DNA from: a virus
Virus record (IMG/VR): IMGVR_UViG_3300028920_000153
Location: 1-38,134 of that record
Strand: one strand, 5' to 3'
Length of the DNA stretch: 38,134 nt
The notes beneath the pieces are model-generated. The model worked only from the letters and a program-made list of their open reading frames with translations, ran no database searches and was not told the origin of the DNA. Positions 1 to 38,134 of the stretch are shown piece after piece. Each line of letters begins with the position of its first letter. The stretch's first letter is position 1. Position numbers and translations under genes: made by a program.

Positions 1-673
1 CAGCCAGTTAGCAGCCTCAGGAGATTACAGCAAGTTAGCAGCCTCAGGAGATTCCAGCCAGTTAGCAGCCTCAGGATATTCCAGCAAGTTAGCAGCCTCA
101 GGAGATTACAGCAAGTTAGCAGCCTCAGGATATTCCAGCCAGTTAGCAGCCTCAGGAGATTCCAGCCAGTTAGCAGCCCCAGGAGATTCCAGCCAGTTAG
201 CAGCCTCAGGAGATTCCAGCCAGTTAGCAGCCTCAGGATATTCCAGCCAGTTAGCAGCCTCAGGAGATTACAGCAAGTTAGCAGCCTCAGGATATTCCAG
301 CAAGTTAGCAGCCTCAGGATATTCCAGCAAGTTAGCAGCCTCAGGAGATTCCAGCAAGTTAGCAGCCTCAGGATATTCCAGCAAGTTAGCAGCCTCAGGA
401 TATTCCAGCAAGTTAGCAGCCTCAGGAGATTCCAGCAAGTTAGCAGCCTCAGGAGATTACAGCAAGTTAGCAGCCTCAGGGGAAAATTCAATATGTGCAG
501 GGATAGGATATAATAATAAAGTAAAAGGCATTAAAGGAACATGGATAGTACTTGCTGAATATGATAATGAAGGGATAGTTATTTGTGTTAAATCAGCCAA
601 AATAGATGGCAAGAAACTAAAGGCTGATACATGGTATACATTAAAAGACAAAAAGTTTATTGAATATAAATAA
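1..673 (+). CDS. Repeat-solenoid protein, C-terminal part (5' end off the window)
   Basis: Open from the first base in the frame whose first full codon starts at base 2; it ends with TAA at 671-673. The visible part is 18 near-identical 9-residue units (type SQLAASGDY / SKLAASGYS) and then a unique tail of about 60 residues that starts SICAGIGYNN and ends KKFIEYK. The gene at the far right of the window has the matching N-terminal domain and enters the same repeat in a compatible phase, so I infer these are two halves of one gene split by linearisation. The regular spacing of small residues and Ser/Ala/Gly suggests a beta-solenoid rod; the tail could be a cap or binding domain. Function is unknown. 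No transmembrane segment is seen. Confidence 0.8.
   Translation, partial: SQLAASGDYSKLAASGDSSQLAASGYSSKLAASGDYSKLAASGYSSQLAASGDSSQLAAPGDSSQLAASGDSSQLAASGYSSQLAASGDYSKLAASGYSSKLAASGYSSKLAASGDSSKLAASGYSSKLAASGYSSKLAASGDSSKLAASGDYSKLAASGENSICAGIGYNNKVKGIKGTWIVLAEYDNEGIVICVKSAKIDGKKLKADTWYTLKDKKFIEYK
2..487 (+). repeat. 27-bp in-frame tandem repeat array, 18 units
   Basis: Eighteen consecutive 27-base units, each encoding nine residues. Nearly all bases are invariant. The variation is concentrated at three single-base positions: AAG/CAG (K/Q), GAT/TAT (D/Y) and TAC/TCC (Y/S). One unit has CCA (Pro) in place of TCA (Ser), and the last unit diverges to GGG GAA AAT. The combination TAT TAC (Y-Y) never occurs. 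Identity down to synonymous bases points to recent expansion or homogenisation by recombination. Confidence 0.97.
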
Positions 674-680
674 GACTACT

Positions 681-1070
681 ATGAAAGAACTAATTAAAGA
701 CGTTAAATTCAATAAGGAGTTAGATTCCGGAGTATACTCTTTTAAAGTAACCTATAACAATAAGACGGCCTATTATTACACTAAGAATAAAGGCCAGAAC
801 TATTTTGTACCCGGACAGGAGGCTGAATTTACTGAAGAAAAACGAACATCACAAAATGGCAGTTATCTTGTTGTAAAGCCAATAAGGGCAAATAAACAAT
901 CCAACTACGGCAAAGCATTAAACAGGGAACAATCCAAATACTCAGGATTCGCTATGGCATACTCTAAGGACCTTGTTGTAGCCGGTAAGATTGACCTTGA
1001 GCAGATGTATGCCGAAGCTCAGTGTATGGTTGACTGGATGTTTGAAGCCGATAAAAACCTTTCGTCATGA
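681..1070 (+). CDS. Small phage protein upstream of the recombination exonuclease
   Basis: A protein of 129 residues, not recognised as a named family. An in-frame TTG lies 21 bases upstream but inside the previous gene; I prefer the ATG at 681, eight bases after that gene's stop. The N-terminal 80 residues are rich in beta-strand-like segments and aromatics (YSFKVTYNNKTAYYYTK, YFVPGQEAEF), and the C-terminal third looks helical (KIDLEQMYAEAQCMVDWMF). Its stop overlaps the exonuclease start (ATGA), so it is translationally coupled to a YqaJ nuclease and SSB. An accessory role in recombination or single-strand DNA handling is an inference from position only. Confidence 0.75.
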   Translation: MKELIKDVKFNKELDSGVYSFKVTYNNKTAYYYTKNKGQNYFVPGQEAEFTEEKRTSQNGSYLVVKPIRANKQSNYGKALNREQSKYSGFAMAYSKDLVVAGKIDLEQMYAEAQCMVDWMFEADKNLSS

Positions 1071-1702
1071 TACTGCATAACATTGAACAACAGTCTGAGG
1101 CATGGCATGAGATTAGGTGCGGAAGGGTAACAGGAACACGATTTAAGTTACTCGTAGCCGGGGAATCTACTGCCACTTACAAAGACCTTGTTACTAACAT
1201 AGCCTGTGAGATCATCACAGGGAGAGCAGAGGAATCCTACTCTAATGCTATTATGGAACATGGCATCCAGACAGAGCCTATCGCAAGGGAAGAATACAAG
1301 ACTATTTTCGATATAGATGTAGATACGATAGGCTTTATCACTCCCGATGAGGACAATAAATATCATGATTGGATTGGTATTTCTCCCGATGGACTATTGC
1401 CTACCGATCAGCCTTATTACGGCATCCTTGAGATCAAATGTCCCCTGATGAAAACCCATTTAGGATATATAGAAGCTAACAAGTTACCGGCAGAATATCG
1501 CTACCAGGTACAGGGACAGCTATTTGTTACAGGATTAGAATACTGTGATTTCATGAGTTACGTGGAAGGGATGAAGCCTTTTATCATTCGGGTATATCCT
1601 GATATCGAGCTATTCAAAGAGTTTGAACGTAGGCTCGATATTCTTATTGAACAGGTGAAAGAGAAATTAGAAATATATAACAAATACGATTATTATGAAT
1701 AG
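1067..1702 (+). CDS. YqaJ-family phage recombination exonuclease
   Basis: A 211-residue nuclease of the YqaJ / lambda-exonuclease type (PD-(D/E)XK fold). Family members digest one strand of duplex DNA 5' to 3' to give 3' overhangs for annealing. Visible motifs: an N-terminal QSEAWHEIRCGRVTGTRF segment typical of YqaJ, HGIQTEPIAREEY (residues 65-77, with the conserved Glu), GISPDGL (104-110, with the catalytic Asp108) and LEIKCP (121-126, the E-x-K of the active site). A C-terminal helix with QVQGQLFVTG fits the family. It is coupled to the gene before it by ATGA and overlaps ssb by 8 bases. No recognisable RecT/Erf annealing protein follows; the neighbouring small proteins or SSB may supply that function. 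Confidence 0.93.
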   Translation: MILHNIEQQSEAWHEIRCGRVTGTRFKLLVAGESTATYKDLVTNIACEIITGRAEESYSNAIMEHGIQTEPIAREEYKTIFDIDVDTIGFITPDEDNKYHDWIGISPDGLLPTDQPYYGILEIKCPLMKTHLGYIEANKLPAEYRYQVQGQLFVTGLEYCDFMSYVEGMKPFIIRVYPDIELFKEFERRLDILIEQVKEKLEIYNKYDYYE

Positions 1703-2111
1703 ATGTTTTTTACATGGCAATGTCGGGAAAGATCCCGATGTCAGAACCCTCGAATCAGGTAATAAGGTTGCTAAGTTCAGCCTTGCTACCAATAAAGTAT
1801 ATAAGAACTCATCCGGTGAAAAAGTAACCGAGACGCAATGGCACAATATTTTGGTGTGGAATAAATTGGCAGATCTTTGTGAAAAATATATTACTAAGGG
1901 CAGTTCTGTTATTATCGAAGGTGAGATAAGCTACCGGACCTACGAAAACAAAGACGGCATCACAGTTTATATGACAGAGATAAACGGCAACGCTTTACAT
2001 GGTGAATGGAAGAAAGGCGAAAAGAGAGCTGTTAAGTCTATGTCTGATCCGGATGAACTGCCGGGATATGTCAATAGTGGAGATGTACCTGATGATGAAT
2101 TGCCTTACTAA
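1695..2111 (+). CDS. ssb: Single-stranded DNA-binding protein
   Basis: A 138-residue bacterial-type SSB. The OB-fold core is clear: GNVGKDPDVRTLESGNKVAKFSLATN, then TQWHNILVWNKLADLCEKYITKGSSVIIEGE and SYRTYENKDGITVYMTEI. A short linker leads to an acidic C-terminal tip, DDELPY, a variant of the usual DDDIPF that recruits partner proteins. The Phe-to-Tyr change at the last residue is unusual but conservative. It begins inside the exonuclease gene and its stop overlaps the next ATG, so it belongs to the same translational unit. It would protect single strands made by the exonuclease and at the replication fork. Confidence 0.95.
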   Translation: MNRCFLHGNVGKDPDVRTLESGNKVAKFSLATNKVYKNSSGEKVTETQWHNILVWNKLADLCEKYITKGSSVIIEGEISYRTYENKDGITVYMTEINGNALHGEWKKGEKRAVKSMSDPDELPGYVNSGDVPDDELPY

Positions 2112-5763: not shown

Positions 5764-6465
5764 GTGAAAGATCCAGCAGTATTATTTTACACACAAGATT
5801 TTATAACAGGTACTATCCTGATGAGTGATGAGCAGAGGGGAAAATATATAATATTGCTTTGTCTTCAACACCAGAATGGAAAACTTACAGAAAAGGATAT
5901 GTTAAAAATATGCGGGGGAAAGGATGAGGATATATGGAATAAATTTTATCAGGAAGATGGGTATTTTTGGAACAAGAGGATGTTATTAGAAAGCGAAAAG
6001 CGTAGTAAATTTTGTGAACATCAGAGAGAAAATATTAAAAAAAGATGGGATAAAAATAAATACCATGGTAATACCACGGTAATACCTTTAGAAAATGAAA
6101 ATGAAAATGAAAATGAAAATGAAAATAAAGATAAGAGAGAAGAGTTATTAGAGAAGAGAGAGAAGAAATTCAGAGATGAAGTTTTTCTTCATAATTATCC
6201 TAAAGAGATGCTTGATAAGTTTTGCAATTACTGGTGTGAGAAAAACAAGAGTGGTACTAAGATGCGTTTTGAGCTTGAGAAGGTATTTGAGATAAAGCGT
6301 AGGTTAGTTACATGGGCAAGCAGGGATAATAAGATAGTAAAGGCTTCTGATGAGATAACTTATAAAGAACTTGTTTATCGTTTCAATTCAGGTGAAACGG
6401 ATATTTGGGAAAAATACGAGCCTGTTACCCCAGGTGATAAACGAACATTATGGAAAAAGAAATGA
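5764..6465 (+). CDS. Replisome-organiser-like replication protein (DUF1376-like N-terminus)
   Basis: 233 residues with a GTG start two bases after the previous stop. The N-terminal ~85 residues (DPAVLFYTQDFITGTILMSDEQRGKYIILLCLQH...) match the DUF1376-like winged-helix module common in phage replication initiators and DnaD-like proteins. A low-complexity linker with six Glu-Asn pairs follows (about residues 110-121), and then a helical C-terminal domain with EMLDKFCNYWCEKNKSG and MRFELEKVFEIKRRLVTWASR. Such proteins bind the phage origin and recruit host helicase. No helicase, primase or polymerase gene is present in the window, so host machinery must be recruited. The linker DNA holds candidate iterons (separate entry). 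Confidence 0.8.
   Translation: MKDPAVLFYTQDFITGTILMSDEQRGKYIILLCLQHQNGKLTEKDMLKICGGKDEDIWNKFYQEDGYFWNKRMLLESEKRSKFCEHQRENIKKRWDKNKYHGNTTVIPLENENENENENENKDKREELLEKREKKFRDEVFLHNYPKEMLDKFCNYWCEKNKSGTKMRFELEKVFEIKRRLVTWASRDNKIVKASDEITYKELVYRFNSGETDIWEKYEPVTPGDKRTLWKKK
6061..6126 (+). repeat. Candidate origin: two 11-bp iterons plus six GAAAAT hexamers
   Basis: TACCATGGTAA (6061-6071) is followed immediately by TACCACGGTAA (6072-6082) and a further TACC; each unit is close to palindromic, and TACCATGGTA is perfect. Eight bases or fewer downstream are six copies of GAAAAT (6091-6126), a purine-rich, easily melted tract. Iterons plus an AT-rich tract inside the initiator gene is the lambda O / ori arrangement. 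The hexamer is in frame and encodes Glu-Asn pairs, so copy changes would not shift the frame. Confidence 0.5.
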
Positions 6466-15873: not shown

Positions 15874-16215
15874 ATGAAAAAGAGAATAAAATTTCTAAAG
15901 CCGGTACAGAGTTATGACGTAGGATCAACGCATCGCATATCCTCACATTTTGCAGATAAGTTGATAGCAAGGGGTCAGGCTGTTGAGGTTAAGGATATAG
16001 TCGCAAAAGAGGAAAAGCATACCTATGAGACTAAAGAGGAGAAATTTACTCCATTTTATCCTACTAAAGAGAAGAAAGATTTTTCTATTACGGCAGTGAG
16101 TAAGATTGATTTTACAAGCCTCACGGATGAGGAATTATTGGATATTATTAAAAACGATCAGCGTAAGACAGCCATCAGGCTGGCACAGGAAGAGATAAGA
16201 AAACGTGGAAATTAA
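15874..16215 (+). CDS. Small structural-region protein, function unknown
   Basis: 113 residues. The N-terminus KKRIKFLKPVQSYDVGSTHRISSHFADKLIARGQAVEVKD forms a small beta domain resembling short proteins found after capsid genes. The middle is Lys/Glu/Thr-rich and probably unstructured; the C-terminus is a helix (LTDEELLDIIKNDQRKTAIRLAQEEIRKRGN) like a SAP-type or rho-N-type mini-domain, though I do not claim that family. It is the first gene after the stem-loop and overlaps the sugar cassette by 11 bases. Confidence 0.75.
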   Translation: MKKRIKFLKPVQSYDVGSTHRISSHFADKLIARGQAVEVKDIVAKEEKHTYETKEEKFTPFYPTKEKKDFSITAVSKIDFTSLTDEELLDIIKNDQRKTAIRLAQEEIRKRGN

Positions 16216-16972
16216 ACAGGTATATTTTAGTAGTGCAATAAGATTTTTTCAGCAGGGATTCTGCGATTACTGGTCTGTTGAACCTTATCATGATAAGGAG
16301 GAGCCTGCTATATTCTTTGGTATGTATAATGACAGGGATGTTGAAGCTATCAATAGTCATAACGGATTTAAGGTATTATGTCATACAGGAAGGGCTATGC
16401 CTGCTATTAAAAAGGTAATAGCAAAAGATGTGATACTGAAGTTAAGCCCTATGAATATTGAAGAATACAGGGTTGATCCCAATGAGTACAATAAATGTAT
16501 CAACGTAGCTTTCAAGACTAAAAAAGCCATGTTCCCTATTAAAGATTTCTCAATGTTTAAGCCTAATGAGCTTGGAGAAAACATATACTGCTATCTCGGT
16601 AGTGAGGGACGTAAAAAGATACTCGGATATGGTATGGTTAAGAAACTTGAAAGGCATACCAAGCATAAGATCATGATAGGTTTTCTTGGTGGCACTATTG
16701 AAGATACTAAGGTTAATTATTACGATAAGTGCTTTATCAATTTTAAGCCTTCAATAACCGCAGGCATAACTTCGGCTATCGAGCTTGGATATATGGGACG
16801 ATATACAATAAGCAATCTTAATGCTCCCTTTTGCAAGGGGTATAAGAATTTTGAGGCTATCATGGAACATATTGAAAGGGAGAGTAAGAAGATAGGCACC
16901 ATACAAAACTCTCTTGTCGATGGTTATTTTAATACGGGATCTGAATGGAAAAAAGTTGATTTCTGGCAATGA
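16205..16972 (+). CDS. GT-B-like glycosyltransferase (first gene of sugar cassette)
   Basis: 255 residues with a GTG start inside the preceding gene. The N-terminal half has Rossmann-like elements (EEPAIFFGMYNDRDVEAINSHNGFKVLCHTGRA), of the kind that begin several GT-B enzymes of surface-polysaccharide loci. The C-terminal half reads NIYCYLGSEGRKKILGYGMVKKL, IMIGFLGG and INFKPSITAGITSAIELGYMGRYTI, resembling the nucleotide-sugar-binding half of GT-B folds (glycine-rich turn, then Glu in AIELG). The best reading is a compact glycosyltransferase using a nucleotide sugar made or altered by neighbouring enzymes; donor and acceptor are unknown. It overlaps the epimerase gene by four bases. Confidence 0.68.
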   Translation: MEIKQVYFSSAIRFFQQGFCDYWSVEPYHDKEEPAIFFGMYNDRDVEAINSHNGFKVLCHTGRAMPAIKKVIAKDVILKLSPMNIEEYRVDPNEYNKCINVAFKTKKAMFPIKDFSMFKPNELGENIYCYLGSEGRKKILGYGMVKKLERHTKHKIMIGFLGGTIEDTKVNYYDKCFINFKPSITAGITSAIELGYMGRYTISNLNAPFCKGYKNFEAIMEHIERESKKIGTIQNSLVDGYFNTGSEWKKVDFWQ

Positions 16973-17931
16973 AAAAGGTCATCATCTTTGGAGCAACAGG
17001 GGGAATAGGTTCTTATACCGTTCTTGAACTTCTTAACGATTATGAGATAGTCGCAGTAGGGAGAAGGGACGATAATGGCTTCTTCAAAGAGCTTGGTGTT
17101 GAATATATACGTTGCGACATAACCCGTGATGATGATTATCTGAAGCTACCGGGTGATAAGTATGCTGTCATCAACCTGGCAGCTATGATGCCTGCACGCA
17201 TGAAAGGTTATGATCCGCAGCAATATGTTGATACACTATTAAACCTGAACATCTTTAATTATGTAGCCGGCTCAGAAAAGTATATCGGTTTTCAGAGTTT
17301 CTCCGATGTGTTTTACCTGTGGGGTAGGATACCTATACCGGCAGATGCAGAAAGCAGGTTCCCTCTGAATAACGATCATTCTGTTTATTCAATATGCAAG
17401 ACGGCAGCTATGAATATAGCCTCACATTATGCTGAGAAATGTTATTTTAAAAATTTCACCATCCGTCTGCCTAATGTATATATATATCATCCCAACCCTT
17501 ATTATTATCTCAATGGCAGGTTATTCTGGCAGAACTACCGTCTGATGATCGATAATGCCTGTCACGGAGAGAATATTGAGATATGGGGTGATCCTACAAT
17601 AGAACGTGATATTCTTTATGTGAAAGATGTTACAAGAGTAATAAAGCTATGCCTTGAATCAGATAAACCGGGTATATACAATGCAGGTACAGGAATAGGT
17701 ACTTCTTTGGAGAACCAGGTTAAAGGTATAGTAGAAATCTTTGGAGGCAGCTATTCATATAATTACGATAAGGATGATTATCCGACAGCAGGGTATATCA
17801 TGGACATCATTAAGACAAGATTGAATCTAGGTTATGTTCCAAGATATGATTATATCTCTTATCTGAAGGATTTTAAAGAAGAGATGAAGATTAATAGGTT
17901 TGAAAAGCTATGGGGAAAACCATTGCCATAA
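16969..17931 (+). CDS. NAD-dependent nucleotide-sugar epimerase/dehydratase (extended SDR)
   Basis: 320 residues. The Rossmann motif GATGGIG is at 8-14, a CDIT acidic turn near 49-52, INLAAMMP at the NNAA-equivalent position, an FQSFSDV strand carrying the Ser, and the catalytic Tyr140/Lys144 in YSICK. A C-terminal substrate-binding part follows (WGDPTIERDILYVKDVTRVI, GIYNAGTGIG), characteristic of GalE/RmlD-like extended SDRs. It would epimerise, reduce or dehydrate a nucleotide sugar in the cytoplasm. ATGA-coupled upstream; it overlaps the WbqC-like gene by 22 bases. The exact sugar cannot be told from sequence. Confidence 0.92.
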   Translation: MKKVIIFGATGGIGSYTVLELLNDYEIVAVGRRDDNGFFKELGVEYIRCDITRDDDYLKLPGDKYAVINLAAMMPARMKGYDPQQYVDTLLNLNIFNYVAGSEKYIGFQSFSDVFYLWGRIPIPADAESRFPLNNDHSVYSICKTAAMNIASHYAEKCYFKNFTIRLPNVYIYHPNPYYYLNGRLFWQNYRLMIDNACHGENIEIWGDPTIERDILYVKDVTRVIKLCLESDKPGIYNAGTGIGTSLENQVKGIVEIFGGSYSYNYDKDDYPTAGYIMDIIKTRLNLGYVPRYDYISYLKDFKEEMKINRFEKLWGKPLP

Positions 17932-18578
17932 TGCAAAGCAATTATATCCCGTGGAGAGGATATTTTGACATGATAAACCGTGTGGATGAGTTTATTATAT
18001 ACGACTGTTGCCAGTATACCAAGAACGACTGGCGCAACCGTAATATCATCAAGACACCACGAGGCACTCAATGGCTCACCATACCTGTATATCATCATCT
18101 TAGCCAGAAGATAAATGAGACGGTGATATCTGATAAGCTATGGAATGTAAAGCACTGGATAACTATTGAGCAGTTTTATAGGAATGCCAGTTATTTTAAA
18201 AGATATAAGAATTTCTTTAATGTTATGTATGCTACTGCAACATATAATTTCTTGAGTGAGATAAACCTGCATTTCATTAAGGGTATATGTGGATTATTAA
18301 ACATAACAACACCTCTGATTGATTCATCAGAACTTCATATCACTGGTGATAAGACAGAGAAGATAGTTAATATATGCAGGCAGCGTGGAGCTAATAGATA
18401 TCTCTCCGGTCCTGCTGCAAAAGACTATATAGATATGAATCTCATGAAAGGCATTGAAGTTGAGTGGATGAGTTATGATTATGATGAGTATAAGCAACTT
18501 TATCCGCCTTTCGATCAGAAGGTAAGTATTATTGATTACATATTTAACTGTGGGGTATATGAAAGACAACCCGTATAA
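17910..18578 (+). CDS. WbqC-like protein
   Basis: 222 residues. The start MGKTIAIMQSNYIPWRGYFDMINRVDEFIIYD followed by CQYTKNDWRNRNIIKTPRGTQWLTIPV is the diagnostic beginning of the WbqC family, found in O-antigen, capsule and nonulosonic-acid gene clusters. Later features also fit: WITIEQFYRNASYF, LHFIKGICGLL, and YLSGPAAKDYIDMNLMKGIEVEWMSYDY. Biochemistry is poorly defined; it is thought to act on sugar or glycan-precursor modification. The genes on both sides are sugar enzymes, agreeing with that role. It overlaps both neighbours, about 20 bases on each side. Confidence 0.93.
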   Translation: MGKTIAIMQSNYIPWRGYFDMINRVDEFIIYDCCQYTKNDWRNRNIIKTPRGTQWLTIPVYHHLSQKINETVISDKLWNVKHWITIEQFYRNASYFKRYKNFFNVMYATATYNFLSEINLHFIKGICGLLNITTPLIDSSELHITGDKTEKIVNICRQRGANRYLSGPAAKDYIDMNLMKGIEVEWMSYDYDEYKQLYPPFDQKVSIIDYIFNCGVYERQPV

Positions 18579-19161
18579 GATAGTGAAAATGTTTGAGGAG
18601 GAGGTTGCCTCTTATGCCGGATCGCCGTATGCTGTATCTGTGGATAGCTGTACTAATGCCCTGTTCTTATGTTGCAGGTACCTTGAGGTTAAAGATGTGA
18701 CATTGCCTAAGAAGACATATCTCTCAGTGCCAATGTCAGTGATACACGCAGGCGGTACAGTATATTTTAAAGATATCCAGTGGTCAGGACTCTACCAGCT
18801 ATCACCATATCCGATATATGATTCAGCTAAAAGGTTTACTGCTGATATGTATATCCCCGGTTCTTTCATGTGCCTTAGTTTTCATATTAAGAAACATCTG
18901 AAGATAGGCAAAGGTGGTATGATACTGACTGATAACTTCCCTGCTGTTGAATGGCTCCGTTGTGCTAGGTATGAGGGACGGCATGAGGTTAGTTATAAAC
19001 GTGATGACATACAGATGCTGGGATGGAATATGTATATGACACCGGAACAGGCGGCAAGGGGACTGGCATTGATGCAGAATATAGATAGATATAATCCCGA
19101 TCAGGATGAGGGTGACGGGGAAGGATATAGGGACTTAACAGAATTTACAATATTCAAATGA
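18559..19161 (+). CDS. Short DegT/DnrJ/EryC1-type sugar aminotransferase
   Basis: 200 residues from the ATG at 18559 (an in-frame ATG at 18532 would lie further inside the wbqC-like gene). It keeps the PLP-fold core: FEEEVASYAGSPYAVSVDSCTNALFLCCRYL at the N-terminus, IYDSAKRF with the Asp that contacts the PLP nitrogen, and SFHIKKHLKIGKGGMILTDN with the PLP-binding Lys112. A WLRCARYEGR region follows. Family members are usually 360-400 residues; here the C-terminal domain is missing, though no frameshift remnant is seen. Short forms of this kind pair with WbqC-like proteins. It may make an amino sugar or act as a PLP-fold partner with reduced activity. Confidence 0.85.
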   Translation: MKDNPYKIVKMFEEEVASYAGSPYAVSVDSCTNALFLCCRYLEVKDVTLPKKTYLSVPMSVIHAGGTVYFKDIQWSGLYQLSPYPIYDSAKRFTADMYIPGSFMCLSFHIKKHLKIGKGGMILTDNFPAVEWLRCARYEGRHEVSYKRDDIQMLGWNMYMTPEQAARGLALMQNIDRYNPDQDEGDGEGYRDLTEFTIFK

Positions 19162-19165
19162 AGAC

Positions 19166-19261
19166 ATGGCAGATATAGATGGTAAGATGACAGTTATTAA
19201 TATAAATATGAGCAGGGTGTATCATCAATACCGTGCCACAAGACAAAGAAAGAGATTATGA
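19166..19261 (+). CDS. Candidate 31-residue ORF before the glycosyltransferase
   Basis: ATG four bases after the previous stop, encoding MADIDGKMTVININMSRVYH and a strongly basic end (RATRQRKRL); its stop overlaps the next ATG. The gap-free packing fits the operon's style and supports translation, at least as a coupling peptide for the large gene downstream. No family is recognised, and 31 codons can be open by chance. Confidence 0.4.
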   Translation: MADIDGKMTVININMSRVYHQYRATRQRKRL

Positions 19262-21492
19262 AACATATCTTAATTACACGGCTCTGGTTTGATTCCATCA
19301 CATTGATGGATAAATATATTGATGTTGCACTAAAGACATTTATACCTGCTTTAAGATCGCAGACCTGCAAGGATTTTGAGTTTGGCATATTATGTAAGGC
19401 AGATCATGTTGATTATATCAAGAAACGTATAGGTATGGATTTTACCCCTTTCACGGGTGGCATAGAGCAGTTCCGGGAAGAGGCTAATAAAGGACAATAT
19501 ACTTTACAGAGCCGTGTTGATATTGATGACTGGATAGCACCAGGTTATATAGCAGAGATACAGAAGATATATAAGGCTAACATAGACAAGTATGATTCAT
19601 TTGTGATATTTGCACAACCCGTCAAGATGCTATGGCCTTCAAAAACACTGGAACAGGTGGCTCCTTATCATGAGAGACGGATAAGTATGTTTGCCACACT
19701 ATGCCAGAAGAATCCTAAATATCCTATCTATAAAGGCTCTCACGGGGCGTTGTGGAAATATGCCGATAAGGTATTTAAGCTGCCTGATGGTATGGCTCGC
19801 TGGGTACAGCATAAAAATAGTGTTACCAATGCAAGGCTTAAACGTAAGGGAATAACAAAAGTAGGCAATATGCAATTATATGACGAAGATCATAATTGGA
19901 TCAGTGAGCGTAATACCGATCCGGTTATTAACATCCTGACACGCACTTTTAAACGTCCTAACAGCTTTAAAGTTTGCAGGGATAGTATTCTTTCACAGAC
20001 ATACATAAAAGGAGAGGGCAAGTTCAATGACCGGTCAATGAAGATCAACCATATAGTAGGATCAGAGGTTGAATGTCCGTATTATCCCGATGCTATCAGG
20101 CTGACAAAGAAAGAGGGTAAGTTCCTACCGTGGAACCTGCATCTTAATGACCTGGGTAAATATGTCAAGACAGGCTGGGTCATGTATCTTGATGATGATG
20201 ATAAGTTTATGAGTCCTACTTCCTTGCAGGAGATAGTCGATGAGATAGATAATGAGAACCAGCTTTTAATATGGAAGGTACAGATTAATACATGGACGGC
20301 TCCTAATGATAAGCATTTTGGCAAGGTCATCAAAAAAGGACAGGTATCGGGTATAGGCATACTATTTCATTCAAAGCATCTGCCCGTCCCGTGGAAAGCT
20401 ATGCCGGCAAGTGATTTTAATGTTATTGACTACCTGTCAAAGAAACTTGAAGTCAAATGGGTAAATAAGATTCTTACAGGGATACAGGGCAAGAGCAATA
20501 ATCATGGTCGTGTGCCTGCTATTGAAGTAAAGAATCCTAATCTTAAAAAGATAGAGATAATAGAAAATAAAGATATCAAAACAGGGCTGGTGAGCGTTGG
20601 CACCCCTACCTGGAATAACAGGGATATCTTCTGGCTGTCTATTGAGAGCCTATGCCGCCAGGAGACAGAAACACCGTGGGAATATATTGTTCATGAATGC
20701 CCGGGCGACCTGTCTATCGGTGAGGATTATCTTAACAGCTATAAAGACAGGCTCAAAGATGCAGGATGCCAGAGGATAGTATATATCAATAATGGTCGCA
20801 GGGTCAACCTGTCAACCAAATGGAAGCAGATAGCATCTAAGGCGCGTGGTGATATACTCATCCTGCATGATTCTGATGACTATACACATCCGGGGAGGGT
20901 GCAGTGTACTGTTGACCTGATAGGTGATAAGCCGTGGTATGATACACGTTTTGCATGGCATTTCTATATCAAGGATCGCAAGCTCATCCTGTATGATTAT
21001 CGCATTACACATAAACAGTGGAAGACAGGCTTTAATATAGCCCTTCGTACTGATATTGTAAGGTCAATGCCCGATCCTAAGATCAATAAAGGTATACATA
21101 AATGGATGAGCGGATATGTTAAAGATAAATACATAGATCAGGCTAAATATGCCTGTGTAGCTACTACCGGAGCTAATACAGTAAGCCTTAATCGTGTAAG
21201 ACATTTTAGTCATCCGCAGCCTCCTTTTGTTAAGACTGACAAGACAATCTTTGACATAGGGTTACCTATTGATATTATTGACAGATTATTGAAAAATAAA
21301 ACTGTCTCAGGTCTTGAGGTACACCGCAGGATGGAAAAGATAGAAGTTGAGTTTTTAAAGAGCTATGCCAGGTTGTATAAACAAGGTGAGCGTAAGAAGA
21401 TACCTTACCCTGCTTATCAGAGGTTATTACAGAAAGGTCATGTAAGAGCTGTCAATGAAGAGGTTTTAGAAGCAATAAATATAGAGCTATGA
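19258..21492 (+). CDS. Three-domain glycosyltransferase fusion
   Basis: 744 residues with three GT-A-like modules in one chain. Module 1 (about 1-215) begins KHILITRLWFDSITLMDKY and has SRVDIDDWI at 85-93, resembling the putative rhamnosyltransferase family (PF11316-like). Module 2 (about 222-420) begins PVINILTRTFKRPNSFKVC with YLDDDDKF at 310-317. Module 3 (about 442-640) begins GLVSVGTPTWNNRDIFWLS with LHDSDDY at 536-542, a family-2-type acidic motif. Each therefore has its own metal/nucleotide-sugar motif. The C-terminal ~100 residues are basic and helical. Such a fusion could build a short oligosaccharide processively on one acceptor. No membrane segment is present, so it acts in the cytoplasm. 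Its stop overlaps the head-tail connector gene, so it is co-translated with virion proteins. Confidence 0.88.
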   Translation: MKHILITRLWFDSITLMDKYIDVALKTFIPALRSQTCKDFEFGILCKADHVDYIKKRIGMDFTPFTGGIEQFREEANKGQYTLQSRVDIDDWIAPGYIAEIQKIYKANIDKYDSFVIFAQPVKMLWPSKTLEQVAPYHERRISMFATLCQKNPKYPIYKGSHGALWKYADKVFKLPDGMARWVQHKNSVTNARLKRKGITKVGNMQLYDEDHNWISERNTDPVINILTRTFKRPNSFKVCRDSILSQTYIKGEGKFNDRSMKINHIVGSEVECPYYPDAIRLTKKEGKFLPWNLHLNDLGKYVKTGWVMYLDDDDKFMSPTSLQEIVDEIDNENQLLIWKVQINTWTAPNDKHFGKVIKKGQVSGIGILFHSKHLPVPWKAMPASDFNVIDYLSKKLEVKWVNKILTGIQGKSNNHGRVPAIEVKNPNLKKIEIIENKDIKTGLVSVGTPTWNNRDIFWLSIESLCRQETETPWEYIVHECPGDLSIGEDYLNSYKDRLKDAGCQRIVYINNGRRVNLSTKWKQIASKARGDILILHDSDDYTHPGRVQCTVDLIGDKPWYDTRFAWHFYIKDRKLILYDYRITHKQWKTGFNIALRTDIVRSMPDPKINKGIHKWMSGYVKDKYIDQAKYACVATTGANTVSLNRVRHFSHPQPPFVKTDKTIFDIGLPIDIIDRLLKNKTVSGLEVHRRMEKIEVEFLKSYARLYKQGERKKIPYPAYQRLLQKGHVRAVNEEVLEAINIEL

Positions 21493-37410: not shown

Positions 37411-37621
37411 TTATCCTATAATAATAAAGGTGCAGAACGATGAGGAGAAAGAGGTCTGCTGTCATTGTGAAAATCAGCTCGCAATGGTACAGGTATATTA
37501 TGAACGTACCTACGGCATCAAGAAGCGTTTTGTCATTGACCTCTGTATGGAGTGTTATTCACATCCTGACTTCCAGGAACTGAAAGCAACATATCAAAAC
37601 GTAAAAGTAAGACTACTATGA
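37397..37621 (+). CDS. Small double-CxxC protein
   Basis: 74 residues. CCHCENQ at about 21-27 and CMECYSHP at about 50-57 give two Cys knuckles spaced as in a treble-clef or zinc-ribbon fold, with strands between (LAMVQVYYERTYGIKKRFVIDL). Probably a metal-binding adaptor or small DNA-binding protein. Its stop overlaps the ATG of the repeat gene (ATGA), so it is translated just before it. Confidence 0.78.
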   Translation: MKDVSYPIIIKVQNDEEKEVCCHCENQLAMVQVYYERTYGIKKRFVIDLCMECYSHPDFQELKATYQNVKVRLL

Positions 37622-38134
37622 AGAAAGAAACTAAAAAAGGATTTAAGGCTTTTAACAAAGGCTTAAAATGTCAAGACATGCAATATGAGGAAAACTCCGA
37701 ATATAAGATTAATGGTGATCCTAAATTATGTGAAAAAGGATATCATTACTGTGAAAACCCTCTTGACACACTTGATTATTATGATTTGTGTAATAGTGAA
37801 TTTGCAGAGATTGAAGATTTAGGTAAGTATGAAACAGATAATAAAAAGACTGTTACAAATCATATTAAAATAAAAGGAAAGCTCGATCTAACGGGATTTA
37901 TAAGAGCATCCATCGATTTTCTATTTGAGGGAAACAAAATTGATGATGGTATTCAGGCAGCCTCAGGAGATTCCAGCCAGTTAGCAGCCTCAGGATATTC
38001 CAGCCAGTTAGCAGCCTCAGGAGATTACAGCAAGTTAGCAGCCTCAGGAGATTCCAGCCAGTTAGCAGCCTCAGGATATTCCAGCAAGTTAGCAGCCTCA
38101 GGAGATTACAGCAAGTTAGCAGCCTCTGGCGAAT
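37618..38134 (+). CDS. DUF7666-like repeat protein, N-terminal part (runs off the window)
   Basis: It begins at the ATG overlapping the previous stop and is open to the last base. Residues 1-110: KGFKAFNKGLKCQDMQYEEN...YKINGDPKLCEKGYHYCENPLDTLDYYDLCNSEFAEIEDLGKYETDNKKT, which matches the conserved start of DUF7666 proteins (a Cys-containing KGFHxCENPLD-type motif) found widely in phages and plasmids. It then enters SGDSSQLAASG-type 9-residue units, of which six are complete or nearly so. It should join the fragment at the window start. The role of this family is not known; the rod-like repeat suggests a spacer between N-terminal and C-terminal caps. Confidence 0.85.
   Translation, partial: MKKETKKGFKAFNKGLKCQDMQYEENSEYKINGDPKLCEKGYHYCENPLDTLDYYDLCNSEFAEIEDLGKYETDNKKTVTNHIKIKGKLDLTGFIRASIDFLFEGNKIDDGIQAASGDSSQLAASGYSSQLAASGDYSKLAASGDSSQLAASGYSSKLAASGDYSKLAASGE
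37975..38134 (+). repeat. 27-bp in-frame tandem repeat array, right-hand part
   Basis: Five full units plus a sixth that diverges at its end (TCT GGC GAA T in place of TCA GGA GAT T), of the same 27-base type and with the same binary codon choices as the array at the window start. A partial degenerate unit precedes it at 37960-37974. Confidence 0.95.

What the first reader, a model, noticed from the sequence alone, without database searches (positions are those of the whole stretch)
2..487. Homogenised 9-residue repeat with a two-state code at three positions
Across all visible units nearly every base is fixed, including synonymous positions, while three positions switch between two single-base alternatives: K/Q, D/Y and Y/S. 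Y-Y is never used. Such a pattern means rapid copying between units with selection or ancestry maintaining only a few unit types. The protein may vary in length and pattern between phage individuals, like a variable-length surface rod or decoy, without any reverse transcriptase.
Basis: partly seen in the sequence, partly recalled or inferred. Interest (0 to 1): 0.65.

Follow-up and report, generated by a model that had tools for sequence, protein, structure and literature searches.

The report
Hypervariable repeat array in phage early protein
A phage gene expressed early in infection carries a string of near-identical 9-amino-acid units whose number and order change between close relatives and whose variation is confined to three probably surface-facing positions, which points to a fast-evolving recognition or decoy surface of unknown target.

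Summary
The array at 2-487 is the 3' part of one gene cut by the contig ends. Its 5' part, a DUF7666 domain plus six more units, lies at 37618-38134, and the intact relative L099 shows the whole gene with the same neighbours. Across 37 phage arrays (415 units), same-amino-acid codons are 97% identical within an array but 32% identical between arrays: concerted evolution. Nearly all within-array variation falls on three nucleotides (pN/pS 5.9 at those codons, 0.25 elsewhere). In Pseudomonas and Salmonella phages, flanks are 90-99.7% identical while arrays hold 4-28 units in unrelated order. L052 and L054 differ by exactly two units. No reverse transcriptase was found in 34 records. The gene sits in the early left operon just upstream of recombination genes, not among virion genes, so a "surface rod" is unlikely. 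E. coli YdhT shares the repeat and C-terminal domain but has diverged units and fixed length. Best reading: an intracellular early protein with a repeat-solenoid surface, reshuffled by recombination and diversified by selection at exposed sites. Function and target are unproven. Short-read assembly limits exact unit order.

The parts
37618..37956 (+). DUF7666 (PF24703) N-terminal domain, start of the gene
   Evidence: Pfam E 1.4e-25, 90 bits against cut-off 27; phrog_4433
37957..38134 (+). first six 9-residue units of the array, ending in a variant ...TCT GGC GAA T at the contig end
2..481 (+). rest of the array as assembled: a partial unit plus 17 complete 27-bp units
482..673 (+). C-terminal domain of about 63 aa (shared with E. 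coli YdhT) and stop
   Evidence: phrog_27197 E 6e-18 and phrog_4433 C-part; homology of the family's C-domain to the YdhT C-terminus
1067..1702 (+). YqaJ-like recombinase exonuclease, same operon direction
   Evidence: PF09588 E 1.7e-26
1695..2111 (+). single-strand DNA-binding protein
   Evidence: PF00436 E 2.9e-33
37609..37622 (+). AAGACTACTATGAA, leader and start codon of the array gene; exact direct repeat of 672-685
672..685 (+). AAGACTACTATGAA, stop of the array gene and start of the next gene

Best explanation
The array is the middle of one early phage protein: DUF7666 domain, then a 9-residue beta repeat (predicted turn G-x1, strand x2-S-x4-L-A-A-S), then a small C-terminal domain. SHOWN: the units are homogenised at synonymous sites within each phage. 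Number and order change between phages whose flanks are nearly identical. Variation is confined to x1 (NAC/NAT), x2 (mostly TCC/TAC) and x4 (mostly A/C in the first base), with nonsynonymous excess there and purifying selection elsewhere. The gene is in the early recombination/replication operon. INFERRED: unit turnover is driven by homologous recombination between units, probably with the phage's own exonuclease/SSB/annealing proteins. Selection keeps the solenoid core and favours diversity on the exposed face. The array acts inside the cell as a rapidly reshuffled binding or decoy surface (for example against a host factor or defence protein), with the DUF7666 and C-terminal domains as fixed parts.
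For: Codon identity 0.974 within and 0.322 between arrays. pN/pS 5.9 at x1/x2/x4 codons and 0.25 at the other six; x2 polymorphic in 32/32 arrays. Phages Flu_PA14_4 and YA3: flanks 99.7% identical, 27 and 28 units, order no more alike than shuffled. L052 and L054: 870/870 identical apart from exactly 54 bp. Salmonella phages 4, 4, 11 and 22 units with flanks 92-96% identical. Early operon position (YA3 left early region in PMC7326022). Recombination genes same strand within about 6 kb downstream in 13 of 15 records with a hit, three of them only if the contig is closed at the array. AF2 strand/turn pattern in the window's own sequence. YdhT control: same module, unit identity 0.43, fixed length.
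Against: No direct functional evidence of any kind. AF2 of the array is uneven: the window model has pLDDT 87, but its five models span 65-87, and in the L007 model the array is at 35-62. Outside the two longest Pseudomonas arrays, few arrays show an excess of repeated multi-unit blocks (combined p 0.15 over 37 arrays) and neighbouring units are not alike. That is unexpected for simple tandem duplication, although assembly favours such arrays. Most arrays come from short reads, so exact order and length are uncertain. Some arrays are related to each other, so the counts are not fully independent.
Confidence: 0.55

Rival explanations
1. Neutral spacer: the array is only a rigid ruler between two domains. 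x1, x2 and x4 are unconstrained exposed positions, and repeats change number by slippage or unequal crossing-over.
For: Length ranges from 4 to 28 units with both domains conserved. The three positions are predicted to lie in the turn or on one face.
Against: Unconstrained positions should give pN/pS near 1. It is 5.9, and the alphabets are narrow and repeated across phages.
Confidence: 0.2
2. Targeted mutagenesis: an unknown enzyme or copying process rewrites three nucleotides in each unit, in the manner of a diversity-generating retroelement.
For: Variation concentrated on single bases, x1 using all four bases, near-free assortment of sites 4-9 nt apart (four gametes in 10/25, 14/21 and 11/21 arrays), no similarity of neighbours.
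Against: No reverse transcriptase in 34 records. The A at the second base of x1 and x4 codons is nearly invariant, unlike adenine-specific mutagenesis. Pseudomonas arrays keep linked unit types YQ/NR/DY.
Confidence: 0.1
3. Virion surface rod or adhesin of variable length.
For: Repetitive beta protein; weak profile similarity to collagen-like adhesins, which is probably compositional.
Against: Early-operon position in Salmonella and Pseudomonas phages and the IMG/VR relatives; no apparent secretion signal.
Confidence: 0.07
4. DNA-level function: the 27-bp units act as iterons or a recombination site, and the protein sequence is incidental.
For: Homogenised DNA next to replication/recombination genes.
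Against: Between phages the protein unit is kept while the DNA is not (same-amino-acid codon identity 0.32), and selection on the protein is strong both ways.
Confidence: 0.04

Closest known systems
DUF7666 (PF24703) / phrog_4433 phage proteins, e.g. ES18 gp53
   Same: Same N-terminal domain, 9-residue array and C-terminal domain, same early position
   Different: Nothing published was found on function in the held library. The array dynamics reported here were not found described.
E. coli YdhT (b1669, last gene of the ydhYVWXUT cluster)
   Same: 9-residue repeats and homologous C-terminal domain
   Different: Different N-terminus, units only 43% identical at DNA level, at least 80% covered in 5362 of 5426 genomes with exactly 813 bp in 59 of the 60 listed; the window protein is below the curated YdhT cut-off
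hyvI/hyvII hypervariable prophage genes of Ca. Liberibacter asiaticus (Zhou et al. 2011, seen only as a cited title; gene names from memory)
   Same: Prophage gene with intragenic tandem repeats that vary between strains
   Different: Homology not tested here; repeat type and unit size differ as far as I recall
Diversity-generating retroelements
   Same: Variation focused on chosen codons of one protein
   Different: No reverse transcriptase; variation is one base per codon, not adenine-specific

Membership tests
DUF7666 (PF24703) | profile score above the curated cut-off | tested here: met
   90 bits against 27, residues 7-96; 36 of 36 N-terminal domains match
DUF7666 / phrog_4433 architecture | N-domain, 9-residue array and C-domain in one reading frame | tested here: met
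   The two halves match the two ends of phrog_4433; L099 shows the intact gene with the window's neighbours. In the window itself the join lies across the contig ends and is inferred.
E. coli YdhT (NF007410) | score above the equivalog cut-off of 300 bits | tested here: not met
   98.7 bits at best for the window
E. coli YdhT (NF007410) | homologous C-terminal domain | tested here: met
   family C-domain profile against YdhT E 4e-9 at Z=100000, array excluded
Diversity-generating retroelement target | reverse transcriptase in the genome | tested here: not met
   no PF00078 match in 34 records, control rings in 3 genomes; records may be incomplete
Diversity-generating retroelement target | adenine-specific variation against a template repeat | tested here: not met
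   A at the second base of x1 and x4 codons is nearly invariant; a template repeat was not searched for separately
Phage virion adhesin or fibre | gene within the structural module | tested here: not met
   early operon position
Phage virion adhesin or fibre | protein present in the virion | not testable with these tools
   needs virion proteomics
Known solved beta-solenoid families | structural match in the PDB | not testable with these tools
ADP-ribosyltransferase (name given in one Acinetobacter phage record) | profile match to an ART family | tested here: not met
   no ART family among weak Pfam matches of 36 N-domains at E up to 10; fold comparison not possible

The most novel reading that the evidence does not exclude
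Phages possess a reverse-transcriptase-free way of keeping a combinatorial recognition surface: a repeat solenoid in an early cytoplasmic protein whose units are homogenised and reshuffled by recombination while selection, or a targeted process, keeps a small Tyr/Ser, Asp/Tyr/His/Asn and Lys/Gln alphabet at three exposed positions, used against diverse intracellular host targets such as defence proteins.
Probability: 0.25. Interest if true: 0.85.

Novelty: new variant of a known kind. Interest (0 to 1): 0.6.

Why it matters
Hypervariable tandem-repeat genes are usually tied to surface proteins (general knowledge). Here the same signature, with pN/pS well above 1 at three positions and below 1 elsewhere, sits in an early, probably cytoplasmic phage protein found in phages of several bacterial phyla, and a static chromosomal homologue (YdhT) serves as a control. 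That makes a direct question testable: what inside the cell selects for diversity on this surface?

Tried and rejected
Higher-order (81-bp) block duplication in the window: not above shuffles (p=0.41). Y-Y exclusion as a rule: rejected, Y-Y occurs in the family. Diversity-generating retroelement: no reverse transcriptase. Relatives by terminase gave no DUF7666 match (ten records), and the two closest whole contigs (L059, L061) no homologue of the two genes after it, so no empty site could be read. Exact window units and the odd 3' end were not found in other viral contigs. E. coli genomes hold no match to the Salmonella phage gene, but 5367 of 5426 hold ydhT. Spt5 CTD similarity of the array profile taken as low-complexity. 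Papers on DUF7666 or ydhT/ydhY: none held.

Full report
What is there. The 27-bp array at 2-487 is confirmed. It is not a whole gene. Frame 2 runs 2-673 with no start, and the last ORF of the window (37618-38134) has a DUF7666 domain (PF24703, 90 bits) followed by six units of the same kind and no stop. Both halves match the two ends of one PHROG, phrog_4433. The closest relative found, L099 (70% identity), has the gene intact with five units, followed by ERF-like (read by eye), SSB, a 126-aa hypothetical and an HNH gene. Of these, the SSB, the hypothetical and the HNH gene follow in the same order at the window's left end. I infer that the genome is circular or permuted and that the contig was broken inside the array. 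The same break is seen in G042, with DUF7666 at its right end and array plus C-domain at its left end, and many other contigs end in the array. The true copy number is therefore unknown but at least 24 as assembled, counting the partial unit. The last bases of the window, TCT GGC GAA T, do not match the left end and remain unexplained.

Homogenisation. In 23 complete window units only three nucleotides vary, apart from one S->P unit and the two terminal units. Across 37 arrays with 415 units, codons for the same amino acid at the six constant positions are 97.4% identical within arrays and 32.2% between arrays, although the amino-acid unit is nearly the same. This is concerted evolution with conservation at the protein level.

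Selection. In 32 arrays of six or more units, the minimum number of changes is 132 nonsynonymous at x1, x2 and x4, 9 nonsynonymous at the other six codons, and 21 synonymous. Per site this gives pN/pS of 5.9 and 0.25. The x2 base is polymorphic in 32 of 32 arrays, x1 in 29 and x4 in 26. Alphabets are narrow: x1 mainly D/Y/H/N (NAC or NAT, one third base per array), x2 mainly S/Y, x4 mainly K/Q. Y-Y is avoided but used (18 against 37 expected). Caveats: arrays are not all independent, for example L018 and L044 look like two ends of related phages. Short-read assembly favours arrays with variation and without long repeated blocks, so the lack of block structure and of neighbour similarity may be biased. 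The concentration of variation on three bases should not be.

Length and order. Seven P. aeruginosa phage types with flanks 90-99.7% identical have 9, 10, 13, 16, 16, 27 and 28 units, and unit order between them is no closer than after shuffling. The sharpest pair, Flu_PA14_4 and YA3, has flanks 99.7% identical and an edit distance of 15. YA3 is a short-read assembly (PMC7326022), so its exact order needs long reads. Salmonella phages ES18, SEN22, S135 and the ECO95 contig have 11, 22, 4 and 4 units with flanks 92-96% identical. L052 and L054 are identical over 870 bases and differ by exactly two units. Groups of Pseudomonas records with an identical gene also exist; these are likely clonal. 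Phages 5371 and 5399 share one array and protein.

Position. In ES18 the gene follows the antiterminator in the early left operon and precedes cIII, kil, erf and ssb. In SEN22 and S135 it likewise follows N and precedes exonuclease VIII or Erf/ssb. By its position, the gene falls in the left early/delayed-early region that the YA3 paper defines. Among the IMG/VR relatives and the window, 15 records have a match over the cut-off to SSB, YqaJ, RecT or ERF (DUF7666 positions). In 13 the match is downstream on the same strand within about 6 kb, three of these (the window, G042, G031) only if the contig is closed at the array. This placement argues against a virion part.

Structure. AF2 of the window's array and C-domain gives a strand per unit with the turn at G-x1 over most of the array (pLDDT 87; the five models range 65-87). 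In a full-length relative the N- and C-domains are confident (about 95) and the array is not (35-62). On this model x1 is in the turn, x2 and x4 share one face of the strand, and S, L and A the other. Which face is exposed is inferred.

Control. The NCBIfam model for E. coli YdhT matches the window's array and C-terminus (E 4e-28). With the array excluded, the family's C-domain is homologous to the YdhT C-terminus (E 4e-9). YdhT has a different N-terminus, its units are 43% identical against 93% in the phages, and it is at least 80% covered in 5362 of 5426 E. coli genomes, with a span of exactly 813 bp in 59 of the 60 records listed. The same module on a chromosome thus shows neither homogenisation nor, as far as sampled, length variation.

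Conclusion. Shown: one early gene, concerted evolution, hypervariable length and order, nonsynonymous excess at three sites, no reverse transcriptase found. Inferred: recombination between units as the engine and an intracellular recognition or decoy surface as the reason. The target and the function are unknown.

Noticed in passing
37609-37622 and 672-685: An exact 14-bp direct repeat, AAGACTACTATGAA, sits at the start of the array gene and at the start of the next gene (0 mismatches; 2 matches against 0.44 expected even with 2 mismatches allowed). It could let the whole gene be gained or lost as a cassette.
   Followed up: partly
38122-38134: The contig's right end reads TCT GGC GAA T, unlike any other unit and unlike the array's end at 470-490; it may be a variant unit with Glu at x1 or a strain difference.
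   Followed up: partly
L038, L043, L041, YdhT (L108:3748-4560): The array and C-domain (in L041 the array alone, cut by the contig end) occur with N-terminal regions other than the usual DUF7666 (L043's contig matches DUF7666 only weakly), so the solenoid plus C-domain looks like a module of its own.
   Followed up: partly
L096:1494-2468: In Pseudomonas phage TC7 the frame shifts inside the array, so the rest of the protein is read in another frame; it may be a sequencing error in the repeat.
   Followed up: no
16205-19161, 19258-21492: Between capsid and tail genes the phage carries an epimerase-like protein, a WbqC-like and an aminotransferase-like protein and a large glycosyltransferase-like protein, suggesting a sugar-modification cassette (read by eye from the translations only).
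   Followed up: no
1695-2111: The SSB also gives a weak match below cut-off to Tad4, a Thoeris inhibitor family (E 0.001).
   Followed up: no
6091-6126: A perfect 6-copy GAAAAT repeat encodes a run of Glu-Asn in the replication-like protein 5764-6465.
   Followed up: no
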